Origin: Bacteroidales bacterium OttesenSCG-928-M11
Lineage (GTDB): Bacteria > Bacteroidota > Bacteroidia > Bacteroidales > Azobacteroidaceae
Direction of reading: 5' to 3'
DNA: 46,433 nucleotides
Assembly: GCA_030265685.1 (NCBI GenBank)
Contig: JAJDGO010000005.1
Coordinates: 1 to 46,433, forward strand
Shown here piece after piece: positions 2,594 to 37,977 of the stretch. The notes below the pieces were generated by a model that was not told the origin of the DNA, did not search any database, and saw only the letters and a program-made list of their open reading frames with translations. The first letter of the stretch is position 1. Each line of letters opens with the position of its first letter. The translations under genes and the position numbers were made by a program.

Positions 2594-2717
2594 AACTTAC
2601 CCCAAGTTTTAGTATAACTTGGGGTAAGTTATACTATCTTTTTAAACTTTTCTGTACAGAAAATATTACAAGTTCTAGTATCTTTTACCCATGTTGCACC
2701 GGAACTTTTGTAAAGTT
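2594..2717. repeat. 22-bp-period dyad array A (upstream of thrS)
   Basis: Units start at 2594, 2616, 2638, about 2660, 2682 and 2703. The first two are AACTTACCCCAAGTT and its mate AACTTGGGGTAAGTT, separated by the 7-nt linker TTAGTAT; together they form a perfect 17-bp stem (2592-2608 with 2616-2632) around a 7-nt loop. Then come a CTTTT-type unit, the palindrome TTTTCTGTACAGAAAA (2648-2663), a degenerate unit, and AACTTTTGTAAAGTT (2703-2717). Spacing is 22 nt with 1-nt slips around 2651 and 2682. The array ends about 45 nt before the thrS -7 element. Confidence 0.8.
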
Positions 2718-2762
2718 ATATGTAATTTAGGATATTCTTGTCTTATTTAAATTGTTTTTTTG

Positions 2763-2770
2763 TATCTTTG
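2763..2770 (+). promoter_or_regulatory. Bacteroidota promoter -7 element for thrS
   Basis: TATCTTTG matches TAnnTTTG. A TTG at 2738-2740 lies 22 nt upstream as a loose -33 element. The element lies inside the longer open frame that begins at 2738, so translation cannot start there; this supports ATG 2792 as the thrS start. Confidence 0.7.
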
Positions 2771-2791
2771 CTGGCTGAATTTGAAACAGAT

Positions 2792-4738
2792 ATGATAAAT
2801 ATAACATTTCCCGACGGTTCGGTCCGTCAATATCAAAAAGGGATTACAGCTTGGCAAGTAGCTGAAAGTATTAGTCCCCGCTTAGCACAAGATGTTTTAG
2901 CTGCGGGAATCAATGGAGAAACTTGGGATTTAACTCGTCCTATCAACGAAGATGCTTCTATTAAACTATACAAATGGGAAGACGAAGAAGGAAAACATGC
3001 TTTCTGGCATTCGTCGGCTCACTTGATGGCCGAAGCTCTACAAGAACTTTATCCGGGAATAAAGTTTGGCATTGGCCCGGCTATTGAAAACGGGTTTTAT
3101 TATGACGTAGAACCAAAAGAAGGAACAACGATCAAAGATGCGGACTTAGCTGCGATAGAGAAAAAAATGCAAGAATTAGCATCGACTAAAAACCCAATCT
3201 GTCGGGCTGATATAACAAAAGCCGAAGCTTTGAAGTTTTTCGGAGACAAAAACGAGCACTATAAGACCGAACTTATATCAGAACTTGAAGATGGTTCGAT
3301 CACTACTTATACACAAGGAAGCTTTACCGACCTATGTCGTGGGCCTCACCTACCCAACACATCTTATATCAAGGCAATCAAGTTAATGTCTGTTGCCGGA
3401 GCTTATTGGCGTGGAGACGAAAAGCGCCCTCAGTTGACTCGGATATACGGAATTACGTTCCCGAAGAAAAAGATGTTGGACGAATATCTTGTATTATTGG
3501 AAGAAGCCAAGAAACGAGACCATCGTAAGATCGGTAAAGAAATGGAATTGTTTGCATTTTCTCAAAACGTAGGACAAGGACTACCTCTTTGGTTACCCAA
3601 AGGGACTTCGCTTCGTTTGAAATTGGAAGAATTTTTGAAACGAATCCAACAAGAATATGGCTATCAACAAGTAATCACCCCTCACATTGGGAACAAACTA
3701 CTGTATGTAACTTCCGGACACTACGCCAAGTACGGAAAAGACTCGTTCCGTCCTATCCAAACACCGGAAGAAGGAGAAGAGTTTTTATTGAAACCGATGA
3801 ATTGCCCTCACCACTGTGAGATATTCAAAGCATTTCCCCGCTCATACAAAGAACTTCCTTTACGTTTAGCCGAGTTCGGAACAGTTTATCGCTACGAACA
3901 AAGCGGAGAATTACATGGATTAACGCGCGTAAGAGGATTTACTCAAGACGACGCACATATTTTCTGTACACCGGATCAAGTGAAAGACGAGTTTATTAAA
4001 GTAATGGAAATCATTCACATTATCTTCCGGGCACTTAATTTCACAGACTACGAAGCACAGATTTCGCTCCGCGATCCGAACAACAAAGAAAAATACATCG
4101 GATCGGAAGAAAATTGGGAACAAGCAGAATCAGCCATAATCGAAGTTTGTCAAGAAAAAGGAATCAAAGCTCGCGTTGAGTTAGGAGAAGCCGCTTTCTA
4201 TGGCCCCAAATTAGACTTCATGGTAAAAGATGCTTTAGGAAGACGCTGGCAATTAGGAACTATCCAAGTAGACTACAACCTTCCCGAACGATTCGAGTTA
4301 GAATATGTTGGAGCAGACAACCAAAAGCACCGTCCGGTTATGATTCACCGCGCGCCATTTGGTTCAATGGAACGTTTTGTTGCTGTATTAATCGAACATA
4401 CCGCCGGAAAATTTCCTTTATGGTTAGTACCGGATCAAGCAGTTATTCTTCCTATCAGTGAAAAATACAATGATTATGCCGAAAACGTAGTAAAAGAACT
4501 AAGAAAAGCTGGCGTTCGAGCAATAATTGACGATAGAAATGAAAAAATAGGTCGAAAGATTAGAGATAATGAATTAAAGAAAATACCTTATTTGCTCATT
4601 ATTGGAGAGAAAGAAATAGAAAATAATGAAATTTCTGTAAGAAAACAGGGCGAAGGTGATGTTGGTTCAATGAAAATTACTAACTTTGCCGCGCTTTTGA
4701 ACCAAGAAGTGGAAAAGCAGATGAATGAATGGCAATAA
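2792..4738 (+). CDS. thrS: Threonyl-tRNA synthetase
   Basis: Charges tRNA-Thr with threonine in the cytoplasm (class II synthetase, 648 residues from this start). Domains: TGS (about 1-60); editing domain with HSSAH at 73-77 and CRGPH with Cys182 and His186, the same numbering as E. coli ThrRS; catalytic core with zinc-ligand Cys in MNCPHHC (336-342), motif 2 with [17 protein letters not shown] from 367, and motif 3 near [10 protein letters not shown]; then the C-terminal anticodon-binding domain. The longer frame from 2738 adds 18 residues upstream of the conserved [10 protein letters not shown] start and overlaps the promoter, so I rejected it. First gene of the thrS-infC-rpmI-rplT operon; infC starts 9 nt after its stop. 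A 22-bp dyad array lies just upstream. Confidence 0.97.
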
Positions 4739-4747
4739 AAATTATAT

Positions 4748-5374
4748 ATGGCGATAGCTAAACAGAAAAAAGACTCATTAAAAGATCAGTATCGGATAAA
4801 TGAACAAATACGCGGATTAAAAGAAGTTCGCGTAGTAGGAGAAAACATCGAACAAGGCGTTTACTCTATCCATGAAGCATTAAGAATGGCTCAAGATCAA
4901 GATCTGGATTTGATAGAGATTTCTCCCAATGCTGTACCTCCTGTTTGTAGAATTGCAGATTACCAAAAATTCATCTACCAACAAAAGAAAAGGCAAAAAG
5001 AGCAAAAGGCGAAATCAGTTAAAATTGTAGTTAAAGAAATTCGTTTCGGACCTCAAACCGACGACCACGATTACAATTTCAAATTCAAGCACGCCAAGTC
5101 TTTCTTAGAAGAAGGAGCTAAAGTAAAAGCATATGTATTCTTCAAAGGACGCTCCATCTTATTCAAGGAACAAGGAGAAGTACTTTTACTTCGATTTGCC
5201 AATGACTTGGAAGACTATGCCAAAGTTGAATCACTTCCGTCGTTAGAAGGAAAAAAAATGATTATCATGCTTTCTCCTAAAAAACCGGCGCAATCTCAAA
5301 AAGTAACTCCAAAGTCTGCCGAAACAGAAAAAAAGGCAAAACCAAAGACAGAGGATAAAAAAGAAGAAAATTAA
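4748..5374 (+). CDS. infC: Translation initiation factor IF-3
   Basis: A 208-residue IF-3, which binds the 30S subunit, prevents premature 50S joining and proofreads start codon and initiator tRNA selection. N-domain begins [20 protein letters not shown] (residues 16-35); linker has [19 protein letters not shown]-domain has [22 protein letters not shown] Lys/Glu-rich tail of about 25 residues (ending KTEDKKEEN) is a lineage extension. It starts with ATG (4748-4750), unlike the AUU start of enterobacterial infC. That matters here because murI in this window appears to use AUU, and IF-3 is the factor that discriminates against such starts. Between thrS and rpmI in the classic operon. Confidence 0.96.
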
Positions 5375-5420
5375 ATGGTCGTAAGACCTGCTAAGTATAA
5401 CAATTTAAAAGTAAAGTACA

Positions 5421-5618
5421 ATGCCTAAAATGAAAACCAATTCCGGTGCAAAAAAAAGATTTACTCTTACCGGGACAGGAAAAATTAAGCGCAAACACGC
5501 TTACAAAAGTCACATTCTTACGAAGAAGACTAAAAAACAAAAGAGAAGATTAACCCATTTTTCCATTCTGAACAAGTCGAACGAGACTAGTGTGAAGGAA
5601 ATGTTGTGTATGAAGTAA
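5421..5618 (+). CDS. rpmI: 50S ribosomal protein bL35
   Basis: A 65-residue, strongly basic protein beginning [20 protein letters not shown], the diagnostic bL35 start, with the conserved [20 protein letters not shown] segment. It binds 23S rRNA in the large subunit. It follows infC by 46 nt and precedes rplT by 27 nt in the standard infC-rpmI-rplT order. Family-typical length; nothing odd. Confidence 0.96.
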
Positions 5619-5645
5619 TTGTTAAACCATTAAATTTTAATTATT

Positions 5646-5990
5646 ATGCCTAGATCGGTTAATCACGTAGCGTCGAGAGCTAAAAGAAAAAGAATCCTCA
5701 AATTAACAAGAGGTTATTATGGAGCTCGCAAGAATGTTTGGACAGTTGCAAAAAACACTTGGGAAAAAGGTTTAACATATGCATATCGCGACCGTAAGAA
5801 TAAAAAACGTACTTTCCGCGCATTATGGATCCAACGGATCAATGCAGCAGCTCGTTTGGAAGGAATGTCTTATTCTCGTTTAATGGGAGCTTTGCACAAA
5901 AACGGAATTGAAATCAACCGAAAAGTTTTGGCCGACTTAGCCATGAACAATCCGGAAGCATTCAAAGCAATCGTAGAAAAAGTTAAATAA
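5646..5990 (+). CDS. rplT: 50S ribosomal protein bL20
   Basis: A 114-residue basic protein beginning [20 protein letters not shown], with the family segment [20 protein letters not shown] and the C-terminal globular part ([20 protein letters not shown]). bL20 is an early 50S assembly protein and, in other bacteria, autoregulates its own operon by binding the mRNA. Whether such a site exists here is not visible. Last gene of the operon, followed 29 nt later by an intrinsic terminator. Confidence 0.97.
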
Positions 5991-6019
5991 AAATCCTACC
6001 TCACATCTTACAAGAGGAA

Positions 6020-6054
6020 AAAAGGAGTTGTTTCAAAAAGAAACAACTCCTTTT
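6020..6054 (+). terminator. Intrinsic terminator of the thrS-rplT operon
   Basis: A perfect 15-bp inverted repeat (6020-6034 with 6040-6054) around a 5-nt AAAAA loop. The right arm ends in a T run, as expected for rho-independent termination. It sits 29 bp after the rplT stop. Confidence 0.85.
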
Positions 6055-6075
6055 CATATTAGAAAAATCATCAAA

Positions 6076-6112
6076 AAAATAGGGAACCGAATAAAATCCG
6101 ATTCCCTATTTT
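6076..6112 (-). terminator. Terminator for the minus-strand small membrane protein
   Basis: An 11-bp stem AAAATAGGGAA (6076-6086) with TTCCCTATTTT (6102-6112), followed on the minus strand by a T-rich tract. It lies 28 bp past the stop of the gene at 6141-6440. It may act on both strands. Confidence 0.7.
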
Positions 6113-6140
6113 CTTTATTAGAAATATACTTACTCCGAAA

Positions 6141-6440
6141 CTACAACATAGCCGCAGCTCCGATAGCACCAAATACTAATATTAAAAAGATTAAACCAAT
6201 AAATGAGATCACAAGTCCTGCAATAGAAAGTCCCTTTGGTGTTTTAAGAACTCCTACAAACGAGAGGATAGCACCTAATATCCAAATAATCCAACCTAAT
6301 ACCGGAACCCAACCAAGAAACAAAGCGATCAAAGCAAGCACAAAACCTGCAGTTCCGACAGCGTTTGATTTTTTCTCAACTTGATTTACAATGATTGTTT
6401 GATTCAGTTTTTCATTTTCGTTTTGCATTTCATTAGCCAT
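6141..6440 (-). CDS. Small integral membrane protein (DUF4190-like)
   Basis: A 99-residue protein. About 27 N-terminal residues are polar (MANEMQNENEKLNQTIIVNQ), followed by two hydrophobic segments at about 28-60 and 68-98 joined by a short KTPKG loop. The Gly/Ala-rich pattern GFVLALIALFLGWVPVLGWI resembles small DUF4190-type membrane proteins, whose function is unknown. The overlapping plus-strand frame at 6028-6384 has no protein-like features. Transcribed alone from a -7 element at 6472-6479 with a -33 TTG 20 bp upstream, and bounded by a terminator. Confidence 0.75.
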   Translation of the reverse strand: MANEMQNENEKLNQTIIVNQVEKKSNAVGTAGFVLALIALFLGWVPVLGWIIWILGAILSFVGVLKTPKGLSIAGLVISFIGLIFLILVFGAIGAAAML

Positions 6441-6471
6441 AGTATAGAAATTTAATTATTAATAATCCACA

Positions 6472-6479
6472 CAAAGATA
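6472..6479 (-). promoter_or_regulatory. Bacteroidota promoter for the small membrane protein
   Basis: The minus strand reads TATCTTTG, matching TAnnTTTG. A TTG lies 20 bp upstream (plus-strand CAA at 6500-6502), giving near-ideal -33/-7 spacing. Confidence 0.75.
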
Positions 6480-6584
6480 AAGCTTCATTGTTAAAAAAAC
6501 AATAATATTCATAAATTATTTATCCGTTTTTTAAGAATACTTTCTTTTTTTATTTTATTAACATGATTCTTTAGAATGATTCCT

Positions 6585-6592
6585 TACCTTTG
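6585..6592 (+). promoter_or_regulatory. Bacteroidota promoter -7 element for the MBL-fold hydrolase
   Basis: TACCTTTG matches TAnnTTTG, 19 nt before ATG 6612. It is divergent from the minus-strand promoter at 6472-6479. Confidence 0.65.
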
Positions 6593-6611
6593 CTTGTCTA
6601 ATAGATAACTC

Positions 6612-7475: not shown

Positions 7476-7585
7476 TAAAAGGGTAGTTTTTCCTCTTAAT
7501 CAATTAACAATCAATAGAAAAAAATTAAAATTCTCCTTGCTCTTATTTTTTCATATACTTCATTAGCTATAATAAGTTTTTTTAT

Positions 7586-7593
7586 TAATTTTG
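7586..7593 (+). promoter_or_regulatory. Bacteroidota promoter -7 element for the Na/Pi cotransporter
   Basis: TAATTTTG matches TAnnTTTG, 31 nt before ATG 7625. No clear -33 TTG is seen at the usual distance. Confidence 0.55.
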
Positions 7594-7624: not shown

Positions 7625-9430
7625 ATGAATTATTCGCTTCTTGACTTTCTAACCTTGATCGGTTCTTTAGGGATGTTCCTTTATGGAATGAAAATGATGA
7701 GTGAAGGACTACAAAAAGTAGCCGGGGATAAAATGAGAAATATCCTTTCAGCAATGACTACAAACCGCTTTTCTGGAGTTCTTACCGGATTTTTAATCAC
7801 TGCCTTAGTTCAATCTTCTTCCGCTACCACCGTTATGGTAGTTAGTTTTGTAAACGCAGGCTTACTTACCCTGTTTCAATCCATCTCTGTTATCATGGGA
7901 GCCAATATCGGTACCACATTTACGGCATGGATCATTTCCATTTTTGGGTTTAAATTTAACATTGCAACAATAGCTCTTCCTCTCTTCGGATTAGCATTAC
8001 CATTTATGTTCTCATCCAAAAGTAAAAATAAATCATGGGGAGAATTTATCATCGGATTTTCTTTGCTTTTCATGGGATTGGAATTCCTCAAAGCAAGCGT
8101 TCCCGACTTACAAAGTAACCCGGAAATATTAGCCTTCTTAAGACAATATACCGAAATGGGCTTTGGCTCTATACTTCTTTTTCTCGGGATTGGGACACTA
8201 TTAACCATTATACTACAATCTTCTTCCGCCACAATGGCAATCACATTGGTTATGTGTAGTCAAGGATGGGTTTCTTTCGAAATAGCCTGTGCAATGATTT
8301 TGGGAGAAAACTTAGGAACAACACTCACGGCCAACTTAGCCGCACTATCTACAAATACTCAGGCCAGAAGAGCTGCTTTTTCTCATTTCTTATTTAATGG
8401 TTTTGGTCTTTTATGGGTAGTTTGTTTGTTCTATCCATTCTCTAGCTTCGTCGCCGGCATTATAGATCAAATAGGACCGGGAGATCCCTATGCTTTGAGC
8501 ATGTTCTTGGAAAACTTAGAGCAAACCGACCCGGAAACATTCAAAGCAATTACATCCGGAAGCGCAACCCTTACCGACTACCAAAAAGGAATGCAAGAAC
8601 AAATGCTTTCTTTGCAAACCTCAGTTTCATATGGCTTATCATTATTTCACACAGCCTACAATATTATAAATGTTTTTGTAATGATTTGGTTTGTTGCTTT
8701 ATACGAAAAAGTATGTCTAAAGGTTATCAAGAGCAAAGAATCTGATGAAGAATTTCAATTGCGACATATTCAATCTAATATGGTTTCAACATCCGAGCTA
8801 TCAGTATTTGAAGCAAAAAGCGAATTGACTGTATTTGCGGAACGAGCACACAGAATGATTAGCATGGTAAAAAAACTAAATACGATTACAGATGAAAGCA
8901 ACTTCTTAAAACTCTATAATCGAATTGAAAAATACGAAGATATTAGCGATAGGATGGAAATAGAAATAGCTAACTATCTAAACAAAGTATCCGAAGGAAG
9001 ATTAAGCTCCACAACTAAAGAAGAAATACGAGATATTTTACGAGCAAACACAGAGATAGAAAGCGTTGCCGATGCTGTCTGTAATATGGCAAGAACAATT
9101 AAACGCCGAAACAATACTAAATCGACCTTCAATGAAGAAATGAATAATAATCTGAACCACATGATTACTATCTGCGACAAAGCAGTAGCACGCATGATTG
9201 AGGTTCTCAAAATAAAGGAACCGAAAGATATTGACCTTGCCATTTCGATTAATCTAGAGAATGAGATCAATTTACTACGCTCTCAATTAAAGAAGAAAAA
9301 CATCGAAGATATTAACGAAGGAAAATACTCTTATCAAGACGGCGTTTATTATATGGACTTTATTGCAGAATGTGAAAAATTAGGAGACTACGTCATGAAT
9401 GTAGTTGAAGCCATCTGCTTAAAAAAATAA
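7625..9430 (+). CDS. Na+/phosphate cotransporter family protein with PhoU-like domain
   Basis: A 601-residue inner membrane transporter (NptA/YjbB type). Two inverted Na/Pi-cotransporter repeats each carry a QSSSAT motif: QSSSATTVMVVSFVNAGLL (about 63-81) and QSSSATMAITLVMCSQGW (about 198-215). They are the ion- and phosphate-binding signatures. About eight hydrophobic segments span residues 1-370. The C-terminal ~200 residues are a soluble helical PhoU-like domain (from about 400) that probably gates or senses phosphate state. purL starts 12 nt after its stop, so the two are likely co-transcribed. Direction (uptake or efflux) cannot be inferred. Confidence 0.9.
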   Translation: MNYSLLDFLTLIGSLGMFLYGMKMMSEGLQKVAGDKMRNILSAMTTNRFSGVLTGFLITALVQSSSATTVMVVSFVNAGLLTLFQSISVIMGANIGTTFTAWIISIFGFKFNIATIALPLFGLALPFMFSSKSKNKSWGEFIIGFSLLFMGLEFLKASVPDLQSNPEILAFLRQYTEMGFGSILLFLGIGTLLTIILQSSSATMAITLVMCSQGWVSFEIACAMILGENLGTTLTANLAALSTNTQARRAAFSHFLFNGFGLLWVVCLFYPFSSFVAGIIDQIGPGDPYALSMFLENLEQTDPETFKAITSGSATLTDYQKGMQEQMLSLQTSVSYGLSLFHTAYNIINVFVMIWFVALYEKVCLKVIKSKESDEEFQLRHIQSNMVSTSELSVFEAKSELTVFAERAHRMISMVKKLNTITDESNFLKLYNRIEKYEDISDRMEIEIANYLNKVSEGRLSSTTKEEIRDILRANTEIESVADAVCNMARTIKRRNNTKSTFNEEMNNNLNHMITICDKAVARMIEVLKIKEPKDIDLAISINLENEINLLRSQLKKKNIEDINEGKYSYQDGVYYMDFIAECEKLGDYVMNVVEAICLKK

Positions 9431-14733: not shown

Positions 14734-15264
14734 TTAGTTTGCCACTACCACTTTGGCATGACGAATCACTTTTTCATTAAGAGTATATCCGGTTTGTACG
14801 CTATCTACGACAGAACCTTTTTGTTCTTCGTTTTCGGCAGGTATCATTGCCACAGCTTCGTGCAATTCCGGATCGAAAGTTTGACCAATATCTTCAATTG
14901 GTTTTACTCCGTTTTGTTGAAGAAATGTCTGAAATTTATTATAAATCAAGTTAACTCCCTCTTTAAGAGGCTCTATATCTTTCGACTTATCAATATTTTC
15001 CAAAGCACGTTGAAAATCATCTTGTAAAGGAAGCAAACCGGATAAAACTTTTTCGCCTCCATTTTTTATCAAGTCTGCCTTTTCTTTGATTGTTCGTTTG
15101 CGGAAATTATCGTATTCTGCCATTAATCGAAGATAAGCATCTTTCATTTGTGCCAATTCATCCGCCAGATTGTCAGCATTCTCATCCTTTGGCATATCTT
15201 CTGCTAAGTTGTCAGTGATATTTTCTTCCAACTCGACTTCTTTTTTTGAATCTTTCTTGTCCAT
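14734..15264 (-). CDS. grpE: Nucleotide exchange factor GrpE
   Basis: A 176-residue ADP/ATP exchange factor for DnaK. It has an acidic, low-complexity N-terminus (1-40), a long coiled-coil with the signature [14 protein letters not shown] (about 49-62), and a C-terminal beta-wing ending in the family pattern [23 protein letters not shown]. First gene of grpE-dnaJ-PqqD-like. I see no CIRCE (HrcA) operator and no clear TAnnTTTG box right upstream; a 22-bp dyad array lies between it and truA. Confidence 0.95.
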
Positions 15265-15398: not shown

Positions 15399-15523
15399 CT
15401 GATAATGGAAAAGATACTATAACTTTACCCAAGTTATAGTAAAACTTGAGGGAAGTTATTGTAGAACTTGGGTAAAGTTTTATTAGAACTTTGATCAAGT
15501 TGTTGTAAAACTTTGGGCGAAGG
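15399..15523. repeat. 22-bp-period dyad array B (between grpE and truA)
   Basis: The purest array. Five 15-mers start at 15421, 15443, 15465, 15487 and 15509, exactly 22 nt apart: AACTTTACCCAAGTT, AACTTGAGGGAAGTT, AACTTGGGTAAAGTT, AACTTTGATCAAGTT and a degraded fifth copy. Linkers are ATAGTAA, ATTGTAG, TTATTAG and GTTGTAA. Units 1 and 3 are exact reverse complements. Upstream in register are an AAAAG-ended unit at 15399-15413 with linker ATACTAT, and a weaker linker CAAGTAT at 15392-15398. The rest of this 350-bp gap shows nothing else apart from the truA -7 element. Confidence 0.85.
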
Positions 15524-15614: not shown

Positions 15615-16367
15615 ATGGCACGCTATTTTATCTATCTTTCTTATAATGGGAAGCCTTATTGCGGATGGCAAATCCAACCGAATGGAATAACTGTACAAGA
15701 AGAATTAGAAACTGCCTTGTCTACTTTGCTACGTTCTTCTATTTCGGTTACCGGAGCAGGGCGTACCGACTCGGGAGTTCATGCTCATTTGATGGTTGCT
15801 CACTTTGATTTCGATGAAAATAGAATCGATTGTGTTCAGTTGCAAGACAAACTTAACCGGATTCTCCCTCCGGATATAGCAGTTCATTTTATTCGCCCGG
15901 TAACATCCGAAGCGCATGCTCGTTTCGATGCTTTATCTCGAACATACAAATACTATATCATCGACCATAAAAATCCTTTTTTGAAAGAAACAGCTTATTA
16001 TATCCCCCGACAATTAGATTATGTCCGGATGAATGAAGCGGCTAAGATTTTGTTTGATTATATCGATTTTACCAGTTTCAGTAAATTGCATACGGATGTT
16101 AAGACTAATAACTGTAAAATAATGAGGGCCGAATGGATTAAGGAAAACGAAACTTGGGTATTTATCGTTCAAGCCGACCGATTTCTTAGGAATATGGTTC
16201 GGGCAATTGTAGGAACTCTCCTCGAAGTTGGGCGAAATAAACTAAGTATTGATGATTTCCGGAAAATTATCGAACTCCAAGATAGAGGAAAAGCCGGAAC
16301 TTCCGCTCCGGCTCATGCTCTTTTCCTTTATAATATAGAATATCCTGAATCGATATTCCTTACATAA
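15615..16367 (+). CDS. truA: tRNA pseudouridine(38-40) synthase
   Basis: A 250-residue TruA that isomerises uridines 38-40 of tRNA anticodon arms to pseudouridine. The catalytic motif [11 protein letters not shown] places the nucleophilic Asp at residue 52. Other family segments are [20 protein letters not shown] near the start and [18 protein letters not shown] near 195. The stop (16365-16367) overlaps the 3' end of convergent galE by 8 bp. A 22-bp dyad array lies upstream. Confidence 0.95.
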
Positions 16368-21188: not shown

Positions 21189-23606
21189 TTATAATGTGTT
21201 AAATAATTGTTCCAAATGGTATTCGTCGGGGATATAAACTTCTCGAGCTTTGCTTCCTTGTGTAGGACCTACGATACCTGCGGCTTCTAATTGATCCATT
21301 AATCGGCCTGCCCTGTTGTATCCAATTTGAAACTTGCGTTGAATTAGTGAAGTAGATCCCTGTTGATGAATAACAATCAGGCGGGCTGCTTCTTCAAAAA
21401 GGGAATCTTTATTTGATAAGTCGACCGCTCCCGGAGCAGAACTTCCCCCATCTTCTCCAACATATTCGGGCAAAGGAAAGGCCGTTGGGTATCCTTGCTG
21501 GTTTCCTATGAACTTAGAAATACGTTCTACTTCCGGAGTATCAACGAAAGCGCACTGAACTCGTACCATATCTCCTCCTTGAGTAAAAAGTAAGTCGCCA
21601 CGACCAATTAGTTGATTAGCACCAGGACTGTCTAAGATTGTCCGGGAGTCTATCATTGCCATCACGCGGAAAGCAATCCGAGCCGGGAAGTTTGCTTTTA
21701 TCGTTCCGGTAATAATATTAGTTGTCGGGCGTTGTGTTGCAATTACCATATGTATTCCTACGGCACGGGCTTTTTGAGCAATCCGGGCGATAGGTAATTC
21801 TATTTCTTTTCCGGCTGTCATGATTAAGTCGCCAAACTCGTCAATTACGACTACGATATAAGGCATGAAACGATGTCCTTTATTAGGATTAAGTCGCCGG
21901 TTAATAAACTTATCGTTGTACTCTTTGACGTTTCTTACCCCTGCTTGGTTTAATAACGAGTAGCGATCGTCCATTTCTTTTGTCAAAGAATTAAGAGTAT
22001 GTACTACTTTCGTAAAGTCAGTTATAATAGCATTCCCCTCGTCCGGCAATTTTGCTAAGAAATGTTTTTCAATAACCGAGTAAATACTAAACTCAACCAT
22101 TTTCGGGTCTACCAAAACAAACTTCAACTCTGCCGGATGTTTCTTGTAAAGAAGAGAAGTTATAGCCGCATTCAGCCCGACTGACTTTCCTTGTCCGGTT
22201 GCTCCCGCAACCAGTAGGTGAGGAAGTTTTGCCAAATCGACCATAAACACTTCGTTTGTGATTGTTTTTCCCAATGCCAAGGGGAGTTCCATTTCTGATT
22301 CTTGGTATTTTTTCGAAGCAATAATGGAATGCATCGATACCATTTGCGGATCTTTGTTTGGAACCTCTATCCCAATAGTTCCTTTTCCGGGCATCGGAGC
22401 AATAATCCGGATACCTAAAGCAGCTAAACTCATGGCAATATCATCTTCTAAATTTCGAATTTTTGAGATACGGACACCATCTTCCGGTACTATTTCGTAG
22501 AGAGTGATTGTTGGGCCAACCGTTGCTTTTATTGTTTTGATACGAATACTAAACTTTTCGAGCGTTTGGATAATCTTATTTTTATTTTCATTTTGCTCTT
22601 CCATGTCGATTTGATTATCCTTTATATCATATTTCTTTAGAAGATCGAGAGAAGGAAGGTTATAGTGAGCCAAATCAAGCGTCGGATCGAACAATCCTAA
22701 TTCTTCAACCAACTCGTTTGGTTCTTCTTCTTGAACAAGATTCGGCTTTGGATTATCATTTTTTGGCTCAATATAGTCATCTTCCGGAGCGATAATCACC
22801 TCGAAAGAATCTTCGTTTTTGTTTTCTTCGACAAAAGGTTCTTTCTTGTTTTGGTCTTCAACCACAAGTATTGTCGTTTTAGTTTCGAGCGGAACAAAAT
22901 CTTCTTCTTCATCTTTCTGAACCGGTTCTTTTTTTGTTTTCGGTTTTTTGTTCGAGTTATCTCTTTTTGTCCACTTAAAAAACTTACCCCATTTCGGACT
23001 TGCTTGCAAACGGTTCAGAAAAGGAATTGTTTTGGGTGTAACCAATATCATAACCAGGATAAAAGTGATTACAAGTACGAGAAATGCACCGGGCAATCCT
23101 AACTGATTACTCAACCAATCGGAGACAATCAAACCATGTTTTCCGCCAATATATACTGCCGATTCTTCAAACGCCCAACCAAAGAAGAAAGAAAGAGCCA
23201 CCGAAGTCCATATAGTAAGCAAAGAAAAAATAATAAAACTCTTCATCAATGGCGAGTATCGGGCTTTCATCAGCCGAAGTCCTGCCATAACTAAGAAGGC
23301 AAGCAAAAAGAACATCGAAAGGCCAAAGCATTCATTCATCAGATAGTTACTAAGAATAGCTCCTCTTGCTCCTGTCCAATTTTCGGCATGTTCTATTGGA
23401 GCACCACTTTCTATGCGACTTTGGTCGGCAGCACCCGTAAAAAAGAACGAAATCATTGCGATAGTTGCATAAACTGCAAAGGCAAGTACGATTACTCCTA
23501 CAAAATAATGGGTAGAACTACTTTTTATAAAGTCTTTCCACTTGGGCAAGATACTAAGACCATCCTTTTGTTTTTCCTCTTTTACTGCTAATTTTCTTTT
23601 AACCAT
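21189..23606 (-). CDS. ftsK: DNA translocase FtsK/SpoIIIE
   Basis: An 805-residue membrane-anchored motor that clears chromosome termini from the closing septum. Four or so transmembrane segments lie in the first ~190 residues, then an acidic/Lys linker (about 200-310). The motor domain has Walker A GATGQGKSVG (near 470), Walker B VVVIDEFGDLI and ATQRPTTNIITG. The C-terminal winged-helix gamma domain (about 735-805) holds QRKFQIGYNRAGRLMDQLE. The frame extends to 23660, but that TTG is the -33 element of its promoter, so I place the start at ATG 23606 (MVKRKLAV). First gene of ftsK-lolA-trxB-phoA. Confidence 0.94.
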   Translation of the reverse strand: MVKRKLAVKEEKQKDGLSILPKWKDFIKSSSTHYFVGVIVLAFAVYATIAMISFFFTGAADQSRIESGAPIEHAENWTGARGAILSNYLMNECFGLSMFFLLAFLVMAGLRLMKARYSPLMKSFIIFSLLTIWTSVALSFFFGWAFEESAVYIGGKHGLIVSDWLSNQLGLPGAFLVLVITFILVMILVTPKTIPFLNRLQASPKWGKFFKWTKRDNSNKKPKTKKEPVQKDEEEDFVPLETKTTILVVEDQNKKEPFVEENKNEDSFEVIIAPEDDYIEPKNDNPKPNLVQEEEPNELVEELGLFDPTLDLAHYNLPSLDLLKKYDIKDNQIDMEEQNENKNKIIQTLEKFSIRIKTIKATVGPTITLYEIVPEDGVRISKIRNLEDDIAMSLAALGIRIIAPMPGKGTIGIEVPNKDPQMVSMHSIIASKKYQESEMELPLALGKTITNEVFMVDLAKLPHLLVAGATGQGKSVGLNAAITSLLYKKHPAELKFVLVDPKMVEFSIYSVIEKHFLAKLPDEGNAIITDFTKVVHTLNSLTKEMDDRYSLLNQAGVRNVKEYNDKFINRRLNPNKGHRFMPYIVVVIDEFGDLIMTAGKEIELPIARIAQKARAVGIHMVIATQRPTTNIITGTIKANFPARIAFRVMAMIDSRTILDSPGANQLIGRGDLLFTQGGDMVRVQCAFVDTPEVERISKFIGNQQGYPTAFPLPEYVGEDGGSSAPGAVDLSNKDSLFEEAARLIVIHQQGSTSLIQRKFQIGYNRAGRLMDQLEAAGIVGPTQGSKAREVYIPDEYHLEQLFNTL

Positions 23607-23630
23607 CGAATACTTTCCTTTAGAAACGTA

Positions 23631-23638
23631 CAAAGTTA
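23631..23638 (-). promoter_or_regulatory. Bacteroidota promoter for ftsK
   Basis: The minus strand reads TAACTTTG, matching TAnnTTTG, with TTG (plus-strand CAA at 23658-23660) exactly 19 bp upstream. This fits the primary sigma consensus well and shows that the longer ftsK frame cannot be fully transcribed. Confidence 0.8.
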
Positions 23639-23807
23639 CAAATAATTTATGAACCCACAAGATCGAAAAAGGAATAGCTAAACTTAAACAAGTCGCATTT
23701 TATTTACAAAAAAATACCGATATGCAAGTCGTTTCGAAGCCCGATTTCGACAAGATAAATAGAAGAGTTTTAGATCTTTCTTGGATTCTTCGTCAATGCT
23801 TCCTAAT

Positions 23808-23910
23808 TTGTTTGTCAAAAAGATTTAATAACTTGACTTATTTTCTGTACAGAAAATGAAACTTTTCTGTACAGAAAACTTTAAAAAGATTTAGTCTTTT
23901 GTTCAGAATA
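23808..23910. repeat. 22-bp-period dyad array C (between ftsK and proS)
   Basis: Two copies of the perfect palindrome TTTTCTGTACAGAAAA at 23841-23856 and 23863-23878, exactly 22 nt apart. In the register of the other arrays the 15-mers start at 23808, 23830 (AACTTGACTTATTTT), 23852 (GAAAATGAAACTTTT), 23874 (GAAAACTTTAAAAAG) and 23896, with linkers ATTTAAT, CTGTACA, CTGTACA and ATTTAGT. The flanks of this 405-bp gap (23661-23807) hold nothing else I recognise, apart from the ftsK promoter on one side and the proS promoter on the other. Confidence 0.8.
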
Positions 23911-24011: not shown

Positions 24012-25493
24012 ATGGCGAATGAAATAAAAGAATTGACAAAAAGAGAAGTCAATTACTCTCAATGGTATAATGATTTGGTAATCAAAGCTGATTTGGCAGA
24101 AAACTCGGCTGTTCGCGGATGTATGGTAATAAAACCGTATGGTTACGCTATTTGGGAAAAAATACAACGTCAACTTGACGATATGTTCAAAGAAACAGGT
24201 CACGTAAATGCTTATTTTCCACTCTTAATTCCAAAATCTTTTTTGAGCCGCGAAGCAGATCATGTGGAAGGTTTTGCGAAAGAATGTGCCGTTGTAACGC
24301 ATTATCGCCTAAAAAACGATCCCGAAGGAGGAGGAGTTATTGTTGATCCGGAAGCTAAATTAGAAGAAGAATTGATCATTCGTCCTACTTCCGAGACAAT
24401 TATTTGGAATACTTACCGCAGTTGGATACAATCGTATCGCGATTTACCTATATTAATTAATCAATGGGCCAATGTAATGCGATGGGAAATGAGGACAAGA
24501 TTGTTCCTTAGAACTGCCGAATTTTTGTGGCAAGAGGGACATACGGCTCATGCTACCAAAGAAGAAGCAGTAGAAGAAACAACAAAAATGCTGAACGTAT
24601 ACGCCGACTTTGCAGAAAATTACTTAGCCTTGCCCGTTTTAAAAGGAGTAAAAACAGCCAGCGAACGATTTGCCGGAGCATTAGATACTTATTGTATCGA
24701 AGCTTTGATGCAAGACGGAAAAGCTTTACAAGCCGGAACATCTCACTTTCTTGGACAAAATTTCGCAAAAGCTTTCGATGTTCAATTTTTAAACAACGAA
24801 GGTAAACGAGAATATGTTTGGTCTACTTCATGGGGAGTTTCGACTCGCTTAATGGGAGCTTTAATCATGGCACACTCAGACGACAATGGTTTGGTATTAC
24901 CTCCTAAGCTTGCTCCTTTCCAAGTAGTAATCGTTCCAATATATAAAAATGAAGAAGGACTTGCTTTGATCAACGAAAAAGTAGCAAGCATTACTAAAGA
25001 ACTAAAAGACTTGGGCGTAAGCGTAAAATACGACAATGCGACCAACAAAAAGCCGGGTTGGAAGTTTGCCGAATACGAATTGAAGGGAGTTCCCGTACGT
25101 TTAGCAATGGGAGCACGAGATTTGGAAAACGGCACAATAGAAGTTGCCCGCCGGGATACTTTAACAAAAGAAACAGTTTCGATAGAAGGAATTGCTCAAT
25201 ACATAAAAAATCTGCTGGAAGAAATACAACTTAATATTTTCCAAAAAGCATTGAAGTTCAGAGAAGAAAGTACTGTAGCCGTTGATACGTACGAAGAATT
25301 CAAAGAACAAATAGAAAAAGGCGGATTTGTTCTTGCTCATTGGGATGGAACAGCAGAAACCGAAGAACGTATCAAAGAAGAAACAAAAGCAACTATTCGT
25401 TGTATCCCTCTAAATAACGATAAAACTCCGGGCGTAGACATGCTTACCGGAAAACCATCCGTACAACGCGTTGTGTTTGCCCGTTCTTATTGA
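24012..25493 (+). CDS. proS: Prolyl-tRNA synthetase (short, archaeal/eukaryote-like form)
   Basis: A 493-residue class II synthetase that charges tRNA-Pro. It lacks the inserted editing domain of the E. coli-type enzyme and ends in the C-terminal zinc-like/Tyr tail (VVFARSY), as in the archaeal/eukaryote-like type. Class II features: [10 protein letters not shown] (motif 1 region), [23 protein letters not shown], motif 2 around [25 protein letters not shown], and the motif 3 region [22 protein letters not shown]. Its TGA overlaps the yigZ ATG (TGATG). A 22-bp dyad array lies upstream. Confidence 0.95.
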
Positions 25494-33363: not shown

Positions 33364-33367
33364 ACAA

Positions 33368-34063: not shown

Positions 34064-34092
34064 CCAATAAAGGAAAAACGAGAAATTTGTTT

Positions 34093-34100
34093 CAAAATTA
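34093..34100 (-). promoter_or_regulatory. Bacteroidota promoter -7 element for porG
   Basis: The minus strand reads TAATTTTG, matching TAnnTTTG, 30 nt upstream of ATG 34063. It suggests that porG-uppS-bamA can be transcribed separately from ribD and the DUF6242 gene. Confidence 0.5.
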
Positions 34101-34116
34101 TATATTTGCTCACTTT

Positions 34117-35442
34117 CTAATTATCAAACATCAATCCGTTCCTAACTCCTCGCCAAATATCGGTGCATTTAGACACCCCTTCTCCTCCGATTACATAAAA
34201 GAATACGGCATCTTCGTCTACTATTACCGATGCATTGTATCTCCTATTGTATTCCGAAGGGAACAAATACTTGTTTGCCATTGTTTCCCAAGTAATACCT
34301 CCGTCAACAGACGAATAAACTGCGGTATTAATAACACCATTATCATTCTCTCCATTTACGGCAAATATCCGGCCATTGTATATAAAAACATTATGATTCT
34401 TTATTTTAGGAAGACTTTGGCTTTTCGAATTCATTCGAGCCCAATAATACCCGTCTTCTGTACTCCAAGTAGAAGCAAGAACTTCTTTATTTATGTCTTC
34501 GCCTCCTGTAACAGTAATCCGTTGGGTGTTCATTCGGGCATAACTAACCGATGAAAAATTATTTACCGGAAATTCTGTTGGAACTTCTTTCCCATATTTC
34601 CAGGTTGATTGATTTTGGAAGCAAGCGAAAAGAGATTGATTTTCTTTCTCTACTATCAAGGATAGACTTTGAGTTTGAATCGAACTTTTATACAGTAGAC
34701 CTAATATGGCGACAACTTTTTCGGATTCGATAAGATCCCAGCCTACTAAATCGTCCGACATATACAACTCGCCGGTTTCCGTATGAGCAAAAACGCAATT
34801 ACTACCAGCTACTATTTGTTTTATAACCAGTCCGGACGGCAAATTTTCAGTAGCAACAGCTTCCCAATTTACTAAATCTTCCGACTGATATAAAGAAAGT
34901 TCGCTACCTTTTTTGGAGAACAGATAATAATTATTTCGGAATAAAATCGTTTTAGTTAAGTCGGCATTCAAAGCATCAACATTATTGGCAATTCTGTTGT
35001 AACTAATTGAATCCGGATCGGCTTGATGGATATTAATTCTCAACTCATAATGCTTTGTTCTAAGTCCATCCGGAGCCAATACTTTTAATCCCATTAAATG
35101 ATCCGTTATCTTAATTGTATCTCCCGAAGCAATTTTAACAGTATCTTGGTCTGCCCAAGTAACTGTTGAGCTATTGTTTCCTTTTGTGAAAATAATCTTG
35201 ACCTTATCCTTAAATGAAGTTTGGTAAACTAAAGAATCTTTATTGAAAATTTTCCCATTTCGTTGGTCTATCGAGAACTTTGTATCCGACAAATACGAAA
35301 TAGAATCACTTGCTAAGTAAAAAGATAACAGATGAGCATCTTCTGAAAGTATTATTTTATCTAAATCTGTTCCGTTCTTTTCGCAGCCAAATAACAGGCC
35401 AAAAAGACTACAAAGTGCGAATATCCTTAATTTCGAGCGCAT
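34117..35442 (-). CDS. DUF6242-like lipoprotein with beta-propeller-like C-terminus
   Basis: A 441-residue lipoprotein with lipobox LLFGC (Cys20). The N-terminal part (about 25-145) looks like the beta-rich DUF6242 domain (SYLSDTKFSIDQRNGKIFNK). The rest has repeated W and G-I/Y-W motifs (STEDGYYWARM, SVDGGITWETM) like a kelch/Asp-box propeller. Function is unknown; a surface or periplasmic binding role is likely. It lies 53 bp upstream of porG and downstream of ribD. Confidence 0.7.
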   Translation of the reverse strand: MRSKLRIFALCSLFGLLFGCEKNGTDLDKIILSEDAHLLSFYLASDSISYLSDTKFSIDQRNGKIFNKDSLVYQTSFKDKVKIIFTKGNNSSTVTWADQDTVKIASGDTIKITDHLMGLKVLAPDGLRTKHYELRINIHQADPDSISYNRIANNVDALNADLTKTILFRNNYYLFSKKGSELSLYQSEDLVNWEAVATENLPSGLVIKQIVAGSNCVFAHTETGELYMSDDLVGWDLIESEKVVAILGLLYKSSIQTQSLSLIVEKENQSLFACFQNQSTWKYGKEVPTEFPVNNFSSVSYARMNTQRITVTGGEDINKEVLASTWSTEDGYYWARMNSKSQSLPKIKNHNVFIYNGRIFAVNGENDNGVINTAVYSSVDGGITWETMANKYLFPSEYNRRYNASVIVDEDAVFFYVIGGEGVSKCTDIWRGVRNGLMFDN

Positions 35443-35470
35443 TCTTTTATTTATTTAAGCGAGCTGCCTG

Positions 35471-35478
35471 CAAAAGTA
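35471..35478 (-). promoter_or_regulatory. Possible promoter -7 element for the DUF6242 lipoprotein
   Basis: The minus strand reads TACTTTTG, matching TAnnTTTG, 28 nt upstream of the ATG. The nearest upstream TTG is 23 bp away, longer than ideal. Confidence 0.5.
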
Positions 35479-35516
35479 GAACTATTTTTTACTATAGCAG
35501 CCAAGTTCGACAATAT

Positions 35517-36461
35517 TTATATATTTTTAGGTTTAATTTCGTTCCTATAATGTAAAAGAACTGAGTTTTTATACTTTTGAACATCCTCAATGATTCCGTT
35601 AATTGCCGGAGCTTTTACACCATCTTTAAGCAAAAAATCTGCAATCTCTATTCGTGCTTCGTCCCATAAGCCTTCCTTGATAAAGCTTGATAACAGGCGA
35701 CTTCCTCCTTCTACAATTAAAGATTGCCAACCTAAATCGTACATTTCTCCCATCAACTCGGATAAAGTTTTATTATTATCCAGCTCGATTTTAACCGGAT
35801 TCTTTCCATCCCAGTAGCGGGTTGTGAGCAAAGGAGAGTCTAATCGTTCGGTATTTTTGCCAACAATGATCGCATTCTCTTCTGCCCTTAGTTTATGAAC
35901 CAATATTTGTGTAAAATCGTCCGAGAACTTAACCGGAGTTTGCTTATCTCCTACTTCCCTGAGCTTATCAATGAATCCGTCGGAAGACTGAGCCCACTTT
36001 AATATAATATAAGGCCGGTGATTTGCATGGAAAACTAAGAAACGTTTGTTTAGTTCCCGGCAAGCGTCTTCAAGTACTCCGACAACAACTTCTATTCCGG
36101 CGTCTATCAAACGCTTGATTCCCCCTCCTGCAACCTTAGGAAATGGGTCTTGTATTCCTATAACAACACGAGGGATTCCTTTATTGATAATCAAATCGGC
36201 GCAAGGAGGTGTCTTTCCATAATGCGAACATGGCTCAAGATTAACATAAAGTGTAGAATCTTTTAGCAAATCAACATCTTTAACCGAAGCAATAGCATTC
36301 ACTTCTGCGTGTGACTCGCCATAAGTTCGATGATAACCCTCGCCGATAATCGAATCATTCCATACAATTACAGAACCAACCATCGGATTAGGAGCTACAC
36401 GCCCCCTTCCTTTAGCTGCTAATTGCAAGCAACGGAGCATGTATTTTTCGTTAAAAACCAT
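35517..36461 (-). CDS. ribD: Bifunctional riboflavin deaminase/reductase RibD
   Basis: A 314-residue enzyme catalysing the second and third steps of riboflavin synthesis. N-terminal deaminase: HAE (His51, Glu53) and PCSHYGKTPPC (Cys78, Cys87) bind zinc; NPMVGSVIV is at 25-33. The C-terminal reductase (about 150-310) has IILKWAQSSDGFI and IVEGGSRLLSSFI. Somewhat short but complete. Divergent from prmC, whose start is 58 bp away. No FMN riboswitch is visible. Confidence 0.93.
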   Translation of the reverse strand: MVFNEKYMLRCLQLAAKGRGRVAPNPMVGSVIVWNDSIIGEGYHRTYGESHAEVNAIASVKDVDLLKDSTLYVNLEPCSHYGKTPPCADLIINKGIPRVVIGIQDPFPKVAGGGIKRLIDAGIEVVVGVLEDACRELNKRFLVFHANHRPYIILKWAQSSDGFIDKLREVGDKQTPVKFSDDFTQILVHKLRAEENAIIVGKNTERLDSPLLTTRYWDGKNPVKIELDNNKTLSELMGEMYDLGWQSLIVEGGSRLLSSFIKEGLWDEARIEIADFLLKDGVKAPAINGIIEDVQKYKNSVLLHYRNEIKPKNI

Positions 36462-36492
36462 GTTGTTTTGCCTTTCTTTTAAGTTATCTTAC

Positions 36493-36500
36493 TACCTTTG
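36493..36500 (+). promoter_or_regulatory. Bacteroidota promoter -7 element for prmC
   Basis: TACCTTTG matches TAnnTTTG, with TTTG at 36467-36470 22 bp upstream. The apparent TTG start of the longer prmC frame (36498) lies inside this element, so it is not a start codon. Confidence 0.65.
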
Positions 36501-36518
36501 CCAATATATTCTCCTTTC

Positions 36519-37370
36519 ATGCAAGAAACAATTCAATTCATTAAGGAACAATTGAAAGACTACTATCCTGATCAGGAAATCAAAAGCTTGATTTTTTTGA
36601 TATTGGAAAGTGTTTGCCGTATCGACAAACATTCTTTTTTGCTCGGCAAAGATATAAAAATATCAGACACAGAGCAACTTCGGATAAAGGAAATTATATT
36701 TCAGCTTCAAGCCTTTCGTCCTATACAATATATATTGGGGAAATCCGAATTTTTCGACACTCCATTCATCGTAAACAACAAGGTTTTGATCCCTCGACCC
36801 GAAACAGAAGAGTTGATTGAATGGATATTATCTTCTTTCCCAAAAGGAACTTCTATCAACATATTAGACATCGGAACCGGATCGGGATGTATTGCGATTT
36901 GTTTAGCAAAACACTTGCCCAAAGCAAAAGTAAGCGCCGTTGATTTATCGCCCGAAGCATTGGCAACTGCCCGCGAGAATGCAAAATTAAATACTGTCGA
37001 CGTAGAATTTATCGAAGCCAATGTATTGGACAACTCTTTTCTTTTTTTCGAGAACGAAAACCAATGGGACATTATCGTAAGTAATCCGCCTTATATTACA
37101 CCCGAAGAGCAGGCAATTATGTCTAGTAATGTTTTGGATTACGAGCCTCATTTGGCTCTTTTTGTTCCGCAAGACCAGCCTTTACTTTTTTATGAGAAAA
37201 TTGCCGACTATGCATTAACCCATCTTTCACCAGCAGGTTACTTATTTTTCGAAACAAGTTCGATTTACGGAAAAGAAACTCAGGAAATGCTCCAAAGAAA
37301 AGGATTCAAAGAAGTTATCCTTCGGAAAGATATTTCAGGGAAAGACAGAATGATAAAGGCTCGGTTATGA
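36519..37370 (+). CDS. prmC: Peptide chain release factor N5-glutamine methyltransferase
   Basis: A 283-residue enzyme that methylates the GGQ glutamine of release factors. Motif I ILDIGTGSGCIAI (about 115-127); catalytic NPPY at 189-192; N-terminal helical domain (1-85), with RPIQYILGKSEFF typical of PrmC and IPRPETEELI at 91-100. The start ATG 36519 lies 18 nt after the -7 box; the upstream TTG frame was rejected because it overlaps the promoter. Its TGA overlaps the recX ATG (ATGA). Confidence 0.93.
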   Translation: MQETIQFIKEQLKDYYPDQEIKSLIFLILESVCRIDKHSFLLGKDIKISDTEQLRIKEIIFQLQAFRPIQYILGKSEFFDTPFIVNNKVLIPRPETEELIEWILSSFPKGTSINILDIGTGSGCIAICLAKHLPKAKVSAVDLSPEALATARENAKLNTVDVEFIEANVLDNSFLFFENENQWDIIVSNPPYITPEEQAIMSSNVLDYEPHLALFVPQDQPLLFYEKIADYALTHLSPAGYLFFETSSIYGKETQEMLQRKGFKEVILRKDISGKDRMIKARL

Positions 37371-37834
37371 AACTTTCGTACGAACAAGCACTCCATAAGT
37401 TGGCGGCATATTGTAGTCGAGGCGAACGTTGCACCGCCGACCTTCGAAAAAAGATGACAAACTGGGAACTATTGCCCGCCGATCAAAACAAGATCATCGA
37501 TTATTTAAGCAAACAAGGTTTTGTAGACGAAGTTCGTTACGCCCGCGCCTTTGTTCATGACAAAAACAAACACAATGGTTGGGGAATTTATAAAATAGCT
37601 TTCGAACTAAAGAATAAGTCGATCCCAAAATCTATTATCGACGAGGCATTAACCACAATCGATCCGACAGACAATAAGGAAAGACTCGTTGCCCTTCTCC
37701 AACAAAAACATCGTTCCGTAAAAGCAAAAAACGAATACGAACTCCGACAAAAGCTCACTCGTTTTGCCTTAGGGCGAGGTTTTACTATCAACGAGATCGA
37801 GTATGCCTTGCAAGTTTGCAACTTCTCTTTCTAG
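37367..37834 (+). CDS. recX: Regulatory protein RecX
   Basis: A 155-residue RecX that binds and modulates RecA filaments. Helical throughout, with the family start ALHKLAAYCSRGERCTADLR, then YLSKQGFVDEVRYARAFVHDK and NGWGIYKIAFELKNKSIPKS. Coupled to prmC by a 4-bp overlap rather than linked to recA. Followed by a 287-bp gap holding dyad array D and the parC promoter. Confidence 0.88.
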   Translation: MKLSYEQALHKLAAYCSRGERCTADLRKKMTNWELLPADQNKIIDYLSKQGFVDEVRYARAFVHDKNKHNGWGIYKIAFELKNKSIPKSIIDEALTTIDPTDNKERLVALLQQKHRSVKAKNEYELRQKLTRFALGRGFTINEIEYALQVCNFSF

Positions 37835-37852
37835 AACAAAAAACACAAAAAA

Positions 37853-37977
37853 AACCTCCCCAAAAAGATACTTAAACTTGGGTAAAGTTATAGTATAAGT
37901 TGATACATTTTCTGTACAGAAAAGTTTAAAAAGATAGTATCTTTTTAACGAAGTTCCAGTATCTTTTTCAACAATAG
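37853..37977. repeat. 22-bp-period dyad array D (between recX and parC)
   Basis: Six 15-mers start exactly every 22 nt at 37853, 37875, 37897, 37919, 37941 and 37963: AACCTCCCCAAAAAG, AACTTGGGTAAAGTT, AAGTTGATACATTTT, GAAAAGTTTAAAAAG, CTTTTTAACGAAGTT and a weaker CTTTT unit. Linkers are ATACTTA, ATAGTAT, CTGTACA, ATAGTAT and CCAGTAT. All three dyad classes occur in one register: AACTT/AAGTT, TTTTCTGTACAGAAAA (37908-37923) and AAAAG-ATAGTAT-CTTTT (37929-37945). The second unit is identical to one in array B. Confidence 0.85.

What the first reader, a model, noticed from the sequence alone, without database searches (positions are those of the whole stretch)
2594..37977. Family-wide logic: dyad centres every 11 bp, placed upstream of housekeeping genes
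Within the 22-bp period the 15-mer centre and the linker centre are 11 bp apart, so successive dyads fall on nearly the same face of the helix. All four arrays lie upstream of plus-strand core genes (thrS, truA, proS, parC), ending about 45, 76, 65 and 116 bp before the -7 box; two also face grpE and ftsK. Cooperative binding of a dimeric or spreading protein along one DNA face (regulator, nucleoid or chromosome-segregation factor) would explain this. A selfish, REP/BIME-like repeat family is the main alternative.
Basis: inference. Interest (0 to 1): 0.85.

Follow-up and report, generated by a model that had tools for sequence, protein, structure and literature searches.

The report
Evenly spaced palindrome arrays on chromosome
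This gut bacterium carries short clusters of mirror-image DNA sites, two helix turns apart, placed at strikingly even distances between its genes, which looks more like a chromosome-organising feature than ordinary gene switches.

Summary
The four arrays are real: dyads in a 22-bp register upstream of thrS, truA, proS and parC. The 'upstream of housekeeping genes' rule fails genome-wide. In 733 of 1,479 kb of the host genome, 57 intergenic arrays were kept: 15 lie between converging genes, and 26 of 27 in same-direction gaps are nearer the upstream gene's end. They are evenly spaced: 38 intervals, mean 12.6 kb, none under 5 kb against 11.3 expected. Arms (AAGTT/AACTT) are nearly invariant, linkers randomised, with no tail of decayed copies, so the sites look selected. 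Free core positions avoid completing the palindrome and end T-runs ignore gene direction, against hairpins and terminators. The motif is absent from 37 congeners, yet two of them have their own unrelated 23-bp arrays, in one also evenly spaced. REP-type transposases were not found in the three genomes. Best reading: species-private binding arrays for an unidentified protein that wraps or anchors the chromosome, working like gyrase-binding BIME-2 elements without being REPs. Main rival: a short mobile element with self-exclusion. No binding protein or function is shown.

The parts
2582..2707 (.). Array 1, mixed A and B dyads, register 2590/2612/2634/2655.5/2678/2699; between a 311-aa ORF and thrS (both +)
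   Evidence: 16-bp B palindrome at 2648-2663
15409..15513 (.). Array 2, end module plus four A units (15431, 15453, 15475, 15497); between grpE (-) and truA (+)
   Evidence: tandem-repeat finder row 15431-15513, period 22
23817..23901 (.). Array 3, two B palindromes (23841-23856, 23863-23878) between end modules; between ftsK (-) and proS (+)
37862..37968 (.). Array 4, end module, A unit (37885-37901), B palindrome (37908-37923), AAAAAGATAGTATCTTTTT palindrome and a last half-A unit; between recX and parC (both +)
2738..4738 (+). thrS
   Evidence: Pfam
14734..15264 (-). grpE
   Evidence: Pfam
15615..16367 (+). truA (tRNA pseudouridine synthase)
   Evidence: Pfam
21189..23660 (-). ftsK
   Evidence: Pfam
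24012..25493 (+). proS
   Evidence: Pfam
37367..37834 (+). recX
   Evidence: Pfam
38122..40788 (+). parC (gyrase/topoisomerase IV subunit A)
   Evidence: Pfam

Best explanation
The arrays are chromosomal architectural sites. A dimeric DNA-binding protein, not identified, recognises the half-site AAGTTnTA (and the related AAAGATA and TTTTCTGTAC half-sites). About four to six dimers bind side by side every 22 bp, close to two helix turns, so roughly 100-130 bp is coated or wrapped on one face. One such complex stands in intergenic DNA about every 12.6 kb, preferably at converging gene ends and behind stop codons, where it could pin, insulate or relieve supercoils of a domain. The recognition sequence turns over between species. 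SHOWN: arrays, 22-bp register, even spacing, position bias, near-invariant arms beside randomised linkers, absence from congeners, independent 23-bp families in two congeners. INFERRED: protein binding, wrapping, and the topological or nucleoid role.
For: Even spacing: 38 intervals, CV 0.41, none under 5 kb; in 5000 gap-weighted placements CV 0.74 and 11.3 intervals under 5 kb, none as even; holds for 30 intervals without the window, C23 and C83. Replicated in congener G026 with unrelated arrays: 2 of 52 intervals under 10 kb against 21.8 (positions). Arms differ from consensus in 4 of 470 cells in 47 units chosen only by their neighbours, while linkers are near random. Loci by best mismatch: A 29 at 0, 2 at 1, 1 at 2, 4 at 3, then control level; B 29 at 0, 2 at 1, 1 at 2. 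Completing the palindrome at the free core positions is avoided: 8 of 102 against 26.1 (7 of 109 cores without G/C centre dropped). 3'-side and converging-gap bias in three species.
Against: No protein partner was found or sought beyond two families. Positions are not conserved between species, so no single site is needed long-term. In G026 whole arrays share linker order, i.e. they were copied. Adjacent linkers in one G000 array are a little more alike (0.43) than between arrays (0.34), a sign of some local duplication. Gaps without arrays exist: 20 kb of C10, a 94-kb interval in G026. In E. coli gyrase attraction downstream of operons is reported not to be hard-wired in the sequence (PMC6379681).
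Confidence: 0.42

Rival explanations
1. Non-autonomous mobile intergenic repeat (BOX/MITE-like), moved in trans by an unknown enzyme with short-range self-exclusion such as target immunity, which would give both even spacing and species-private families.
For: Private, unrelated families in three congeners; shared left end and partly shared linker order in G026; converging-gap bias is also reported for BOX, 16 converging against 70 upstream of a CDS, P 0.0017, and read there as parasitism (PMC3049150, passages); short intervals are missing in both orientations in G026, as immunity would give.
Against: In G000 neither shared linker order nor decayed copies are seen, and arms are nearly invariant beside saturated linkers; no RAYT-type transposase found. 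No enzyme is known.
Confidence: 0.33
2. Transcription terminators or mRNA 3'-end hairpins.
For: 3'-side and converging-gap bias; better predicted RNA folding than mononucleotide shuffles: mean z -4.1 over 114 strands of 57 arrays, against -0.9 in 94 array-free gaps; T-runs at some ends.
Against: In 13 same-direction arrays with one end module the T-run reads with the genes in 7 and against in 6. Free positions avoid complementarity. 12 arrays lie between diverging genes. No Rfam family hits the arrays.
Confidence: 0.06
3. Operators of a regulon (regulator of housekeeping or stress genes).
For: In the window all four lie upstream of core genes; 12 arrays are between diverging genes.
Against: 15 arrays have no adjacent gene start, 26 of 27 same-direction arrays are nearer a stop codon; one of 11 orthologous faces keeps an array; a regulon does not predict even spacing.
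Confidence: 0.06
4. DNA-uptake or partition labels: private sequences that mark self DNA and are kept evenly spaced by transfer or segregation of fragments.
For: Even spacing and species-private sequence; in H. influenzae inverted pairs of uptake sequences lie at gene ends as terminators (PMC7811141, passages).
Against: Known uptake sequences are single short words about 1 kb apart (PMC7811141), not 100-bp arrays every 12.6 kb. Competence and partition genes were not searched for.
Confidence: 0.07

Closest known systems
REP/BIME-2 elements
   Same: Many intergenic palindromes, several in a row at regular short spacing; BIME-2 are reported to bind DNA gyrase strongly (PMC2817692, passages)
   Different: No RAYT-type transposase found; AT-rich two-turn dyads with near-invariant arms; even spacing along the chromosome; free positions avoid hairpins
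Pneumococcal BOX elements
   Same: Modular (end modules around a tandem internal unit), about 100 intergenic copies, over-represented between converging genes (PMC3049150, passages)
   Different: Internal unit here is a 22-bp dyad, not a 45-bp boxB (unit length recalled); no decayed copies and even spacing here
Phased operators of Lrp/ArgR-type regulators and plasmid iterons or partition sites (recalled)
   Same: About 11- or 22-bp register, oligomer binding on one face
   Different: Known ones are one or a few loci per regulon or replicon, here about one array per 12.9 kb
DNA uptake sequences (Haemophilus, Neisseria)
   Same: Species-typical repeated sequence, inverted pairs at gene ends (PMC7811141, passages)
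   Different: Uptake sequences are single words about 1 kb apart

Membership tests
REP/BIME (RAYT-associated) | Cognate Y1-type (RAYT) transposase in the genome | tested here: not met
   PF01797: 0 matches in G000 (51.7% complete), G024 (92%) and G026 (99%); 17 of 38 genus genomes have one. In the half-complete G000 alone the absence would be weak.
REP/BIME (RAYT-associated) | GTAG- or CGTC-tagged G+C-rich hairpin unit | tested here: not met
   Units are AAGTT-nTASTAn-AACTT; extended self-complementarity is avoided. G026's TCTTAGTAGA holds GTAG but was not tested as a REP.
REP/BIME (RAYT-associated) | Intergenic, many copies, several units in a row | tested here: met
   57 of 60 clusters outside called genes
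BOX-like or MITE-like mobile repeat | Insertion polymorphism or target-site duplication | not tested
   No second genome of the species was at hand; flanks were not tested for duplications
BOX-like or MITE-like mobile repeat | Copies descended from shared masters, with a spectrum of decay | tested here: not met
   G000: linker identity between arrays 0.34 (reverse-complement control 0.35), no decay tail. In G026 shared linker order is seen.
Intrinsic terminator | Hairpin and T-run oriented with the upstream gene | tested here: not met
   7 with, 6 against
Gene-regulatory operator array | Sits at promoters of a defined gene set, kept between relatives | tested here: not met
   15 of 54 between converging genes; 1 of 11 orthologous faces
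Gyrase-wrapped site | About 130 bp with 10-11-bp G/C phasing, bound by gyrase | tested here: inconclusive
   G/C peaks fall at the linker and at the core centre, 11 bp apart; binding not testable here
Partition or origin-type array (ParB, iteron) | Bound by partition or initiator protein, clustered near an origin | not testable with these tools
   Arrays are spread over 19 of 20 sampled contigs; the draft has no origin map

The most novel reading that the evidence does not exclude
A previously undescribed chromosome-organising system of a gut Bacteroidales genus: each array-bearing species has its own fast-changing recognition sequence, laid out as two-turn phased dyad arrays at even intervals of about 12-20 kb, read by a co-evolving wrapping protein that sets or insulates topological domains. 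A comparable 22-bp family in a Kiritimatiellae MAG (31 against 1 control) would mean that the design arose more than once.
Probability: 0.27. Interest if true: 0.93.

Novelty: new variant of a known kind. Interest (0 to 1): 0.8.

Why it matters
Bacterial chromosomes are thought to be divided into topological domains of roughly 10 kb (recalled), but I know of no sequence-defined, regularly spaced domain sites. Here are apparently selected, evenly spaced multi-dyad arrays in two congeneric species with unrelated sequences, so a site-defined spacing could be tested directly. If they prove mobile instead, they would show a very short element with strong self-exclusion.

Tried and rejected
Rejected or weakened: promoter/operator logic; RAYT-REP; terminator/RNA hairpin. 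A YhcG/DUF1016 nuclease partner, suggested by L047, where an array lies upstream of an ORF that I took from memory for that family (the ORF itself was not scanned): PF06250 has no match in the half-complete G000. Purging of near repeats by recombination: neighbouring G000 arrays share a median exact match of 12 bp, at most 25 (38 pairs), and in G026 short intervals are missing in both orientations. Viral carriers: the two-unit A pattern hits one IMG/VR contig (L031) whose repeat has another sequence; the TCTACTAAGA pair hits one contig; TTTTCTGTACAGAAAA hits 13 contigs once each; those last 14 loci were not read. G008's 21-bp array: two loci only. Alternation of A-only and B-containing arrays: 28 of 38 neighbours differ, P 0.003 by global shuffle but 0.08 within contigs, left open. 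Literature: 9 of 10 searches used; no title or abstract start that was listed describes evenly spaced phased arrays, and no paper held both 'Azobacteroides' and 'repeat sequence'; full texts were not read, four papers were seen as passages only.
Full report
OBSERVATION. The window is contig C45 of an unnamed 1.48-Mb draft genome (83 contigs, 51.7% complete). A same-genus genome has a 1,114,206-bp contig, which I recall as the chromosome length of Candidatus Azobacteroides pseudotrichonymphae, so the genus is probably Ca. Azobacteroides; this is recall, not a tool result. The four arrays are present. Each is a run of about 4 to 6 dyads in one 22-bp register. Type A is AAGTT-N7-AACTT with a 5-nt linker; type B is TTTTCTGTACAGAAAA; end modules read AAAAAGATA.

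GENOME-WIDE. The two-unit A pattern with up to 2 mismatches occurs 141 times in the own genome against 1 for the reversed control, and 0 times in 37 same-genus genomes; 5 other genomes of the 117 searched have one 2-mismatch hit each (controls 0-2). TTTTCTGTACAGAAAA occurs 44 times in the own genome (control 0) and 0 times in 37 congeners. The motif-free scan used 733 kb in 20 contigs; 7 of these were taken in part (C10, C12-C16, C83) and C23 lacks 29 bases; C23 and C83 were picked because they had hits, the others by number, plus the window. It gives 40 places at lag 22, 23 at lag 44, and 0-3 at all other lags from 4 to 60. An exact scan of one genome for each of 84,980 species (in which the own genome may be left out) finds 5 loci: four 22-bp tandem repeats of other sequence and one plain inverted repeat.

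PLACEMENT. Of 60 motif clusters, 3 lay inside called genes and were dropped: two chance-like pairs in long genes, and one real-looking array (C14:6565) inside a doubtful short ORF. Of the 57 left, 15 are between converging genes, 27 in same-direction gaps, 12 between diverging genes, 3 at contig edges; gaps of at least 100 bp number 22, 101 and 47 respectively. In same-direction gaps the array is nearer the upstream gene's stop in 26 of 27 (median 83 against 193 bp). Genes were called by a simple ORF script of mine. This contradicts a promoter rule; avoidance of promoters may explain part of it.

EVEN SPACING. 38 intervals: mean 12.6 kb, CV 0.41, shortest 5.2 kb. 5000 random placements into gaps of at least 100 bp, weighted by gap class (weights from the same data), give CV 0.74 (0.57-0.94) and 11.3 intervals under 5 kb; none matched the observed values. 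Without the window, C23 and C83: 30 intervals, CV 0.36, 0 under 5 kb against 8.9. In congener G026, whose array sequence is unrelated, 86 left ends are found; 2 of 52 intervals are under 10 kb against 21.8 for uniform placement on contig spans (minimum 11 in 5000). Spans were mostly taken from the last hit, which favours short intervals in the control; one array per 29 kb at random would still give about 15 (my arithmetic). One of the two is a 147-bp pair. Arrays without the left end are not in that list. Short intervals are missing for both same and opposite orientation. C10 (20 kb) has no array and one G026 interval is 94 kb, so the pattern is a floor with a tail, not a clock.

CONSTRAINT. 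For 47 units chosen only by their two neighbours, the ten arm positions differ from consensus in 4 of 470 cells; the core is N-T-A-S-T-A-N; linker columns carry 0.06-0.73 bits. Linker identity between arrays is 0.34 (0.35 for reverse complements, the control), 0.43 between adjacent linkers of one array, so some local duplication may remain. Best mismatches per locus: A 29 at 0, 2 at 1, 1 at 2, 4 at 3, 6 at 4 (control 0, 0, 1, 0, 4), then as the control; B 29 at 0, 2 at 1, 1 at 2, 16 at 3 (shuffled 0, 0, 0, 11). Old sequence with intact arms and hardly any decayed copies points to selection on the arrays, unless linkers are random at birth. The two free core positions are complementary in 8 of 102 units against 26.1 shuffled (7 of 109 cores without a G/C centre dropped), so full palindromes are avoided: duplex recognition rather than hairpins. 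RNA folding is still better than shuffles (mean z -4.1 against -0.9 in array-free gaps), as an inverted-repeat array must be.

SISTER FAMILIES. G026 has 23-bp arrays of TCTACTAAGA (251+209 pair hits, control 0; 0 in the other 37 genomes searched), with a defined left end and partly shared linker order in the 14 arrays printed. G024 has 23-bp arrays of ATACTCTTCG (66+38, control 0; 0 in the other 37). Among loci held (not a random sample) their arrays also favour converging gaps: G026 10 converging, 13 same-direction (10 nearer the 3' end), 6 diverging; G024 7, 2 and 1 (30 and 13 distinct arrays, 29 and 10 with both neighbours). In 60 stretches of 37 congeners other repeats of 20-23 bp are listed in G003, G006, G008, G014, G019, G023, G028 and G032, some of them low-complexity or multiples of 7 bp; G008's 21-bp one proved to be two loci, the others were not followed. 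Array positions are not orthologous: of 11 flanking gene faces with a G000 ortholog of at least 50% identity in the sample, 1 (thrS) has an array in both; of the 3 with a gap of at least 100 bp in G000 it is 1, about the base rate (51 of 195 5' faces, 57 of 145 3' faces). A Kiritimatiellae MAG has 22-bp arrays of AGTTTGACTGAAACT in seven contigs (31 against 1 control; five loci printed).

MECHANISM. I commit to protein-coated architectural arrays (0.42). Selected dyads, two-turn phasing, 3'-side and converging placement, and even spacing together fit a topological or nucleoid role better than gene regulation. BIME-2 elements, reported to bind gyrase (PMC2817692, passages), are the closest working analogue; the E. 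coli gyrase motif shows about 10.75-bp G/C phasing over 130 bp and gyrase cleavage is enriched downstream of transcribed operons, though that enrichment is reported not to be hard-wired in the sequence (PMC6379681, abstract and passages). A self-excluding mobile repeat (0.33) explains private families and copying in G026 but not the lack of decay in G000. BOX elements show that converging-gap bias alone is compatible with parasitism (PMC3049150, passages).

LIMITS. No protein partner, no experiment, a half-complete draft, anonymous relatives, a simple gene caller. PF01797 and PF06250 were the only partner families searched.

Noticed in passing
L050 and L144-L156 (Kiritimatiellae MAG, G120): Genome-wide 22-bp arrays of AGTTTGACTGAAACT palindromes flanked in several copies by a further outer inverted repeat (AATCCAAGCCTG / AGGCTTGGATT); same design in another phylum.
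   Followed up: partly
G026 and G024 (loci L157-L206, L289-L318): Two congeners each with a private genome-wide 23-bp array family; in G026 single cores appear in both orientations (TCTACTAAGA or TCTTAGTAGA) at the same place of otherwise similar arrays, as if flipped.
   Followed up: partly
G000 sampled contigs: A-only and B-containing arrays tend to alternate along contigs (28 of 38 neighbours differ; P 0.003 global shuffle, 0.08 within contigs).
   Followed up: partly
L047:5450-5560: 22-bp array upstream of a 408-aa ORF on the minus strand that I took from memory for a YhcG/DUF1016-type nuclease; not scanned against a family library.
   Followed up: no
L031:4590-4720: Viral contig with several inverted repeats AAGTTCA-CCCTGAACTT-like at short distance, of another sequence than the window's arrays.
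   Followed up: no
L273:13162-13273, L274:7103-7200, L239:5627-5717, L251:10646-10737, L253:1-605: 7-bp (G024, G031, G023) and 8-bp (G013) tandem repeat runs in congeners, some next to the 23-bp arrays of G024.
   Followed up: no
L258:19349-19676 and 9209-9349: G008 has a 21-bp palindromic tandem array (two loci in the genome) and a 23-bp one.
   Followed up: partly
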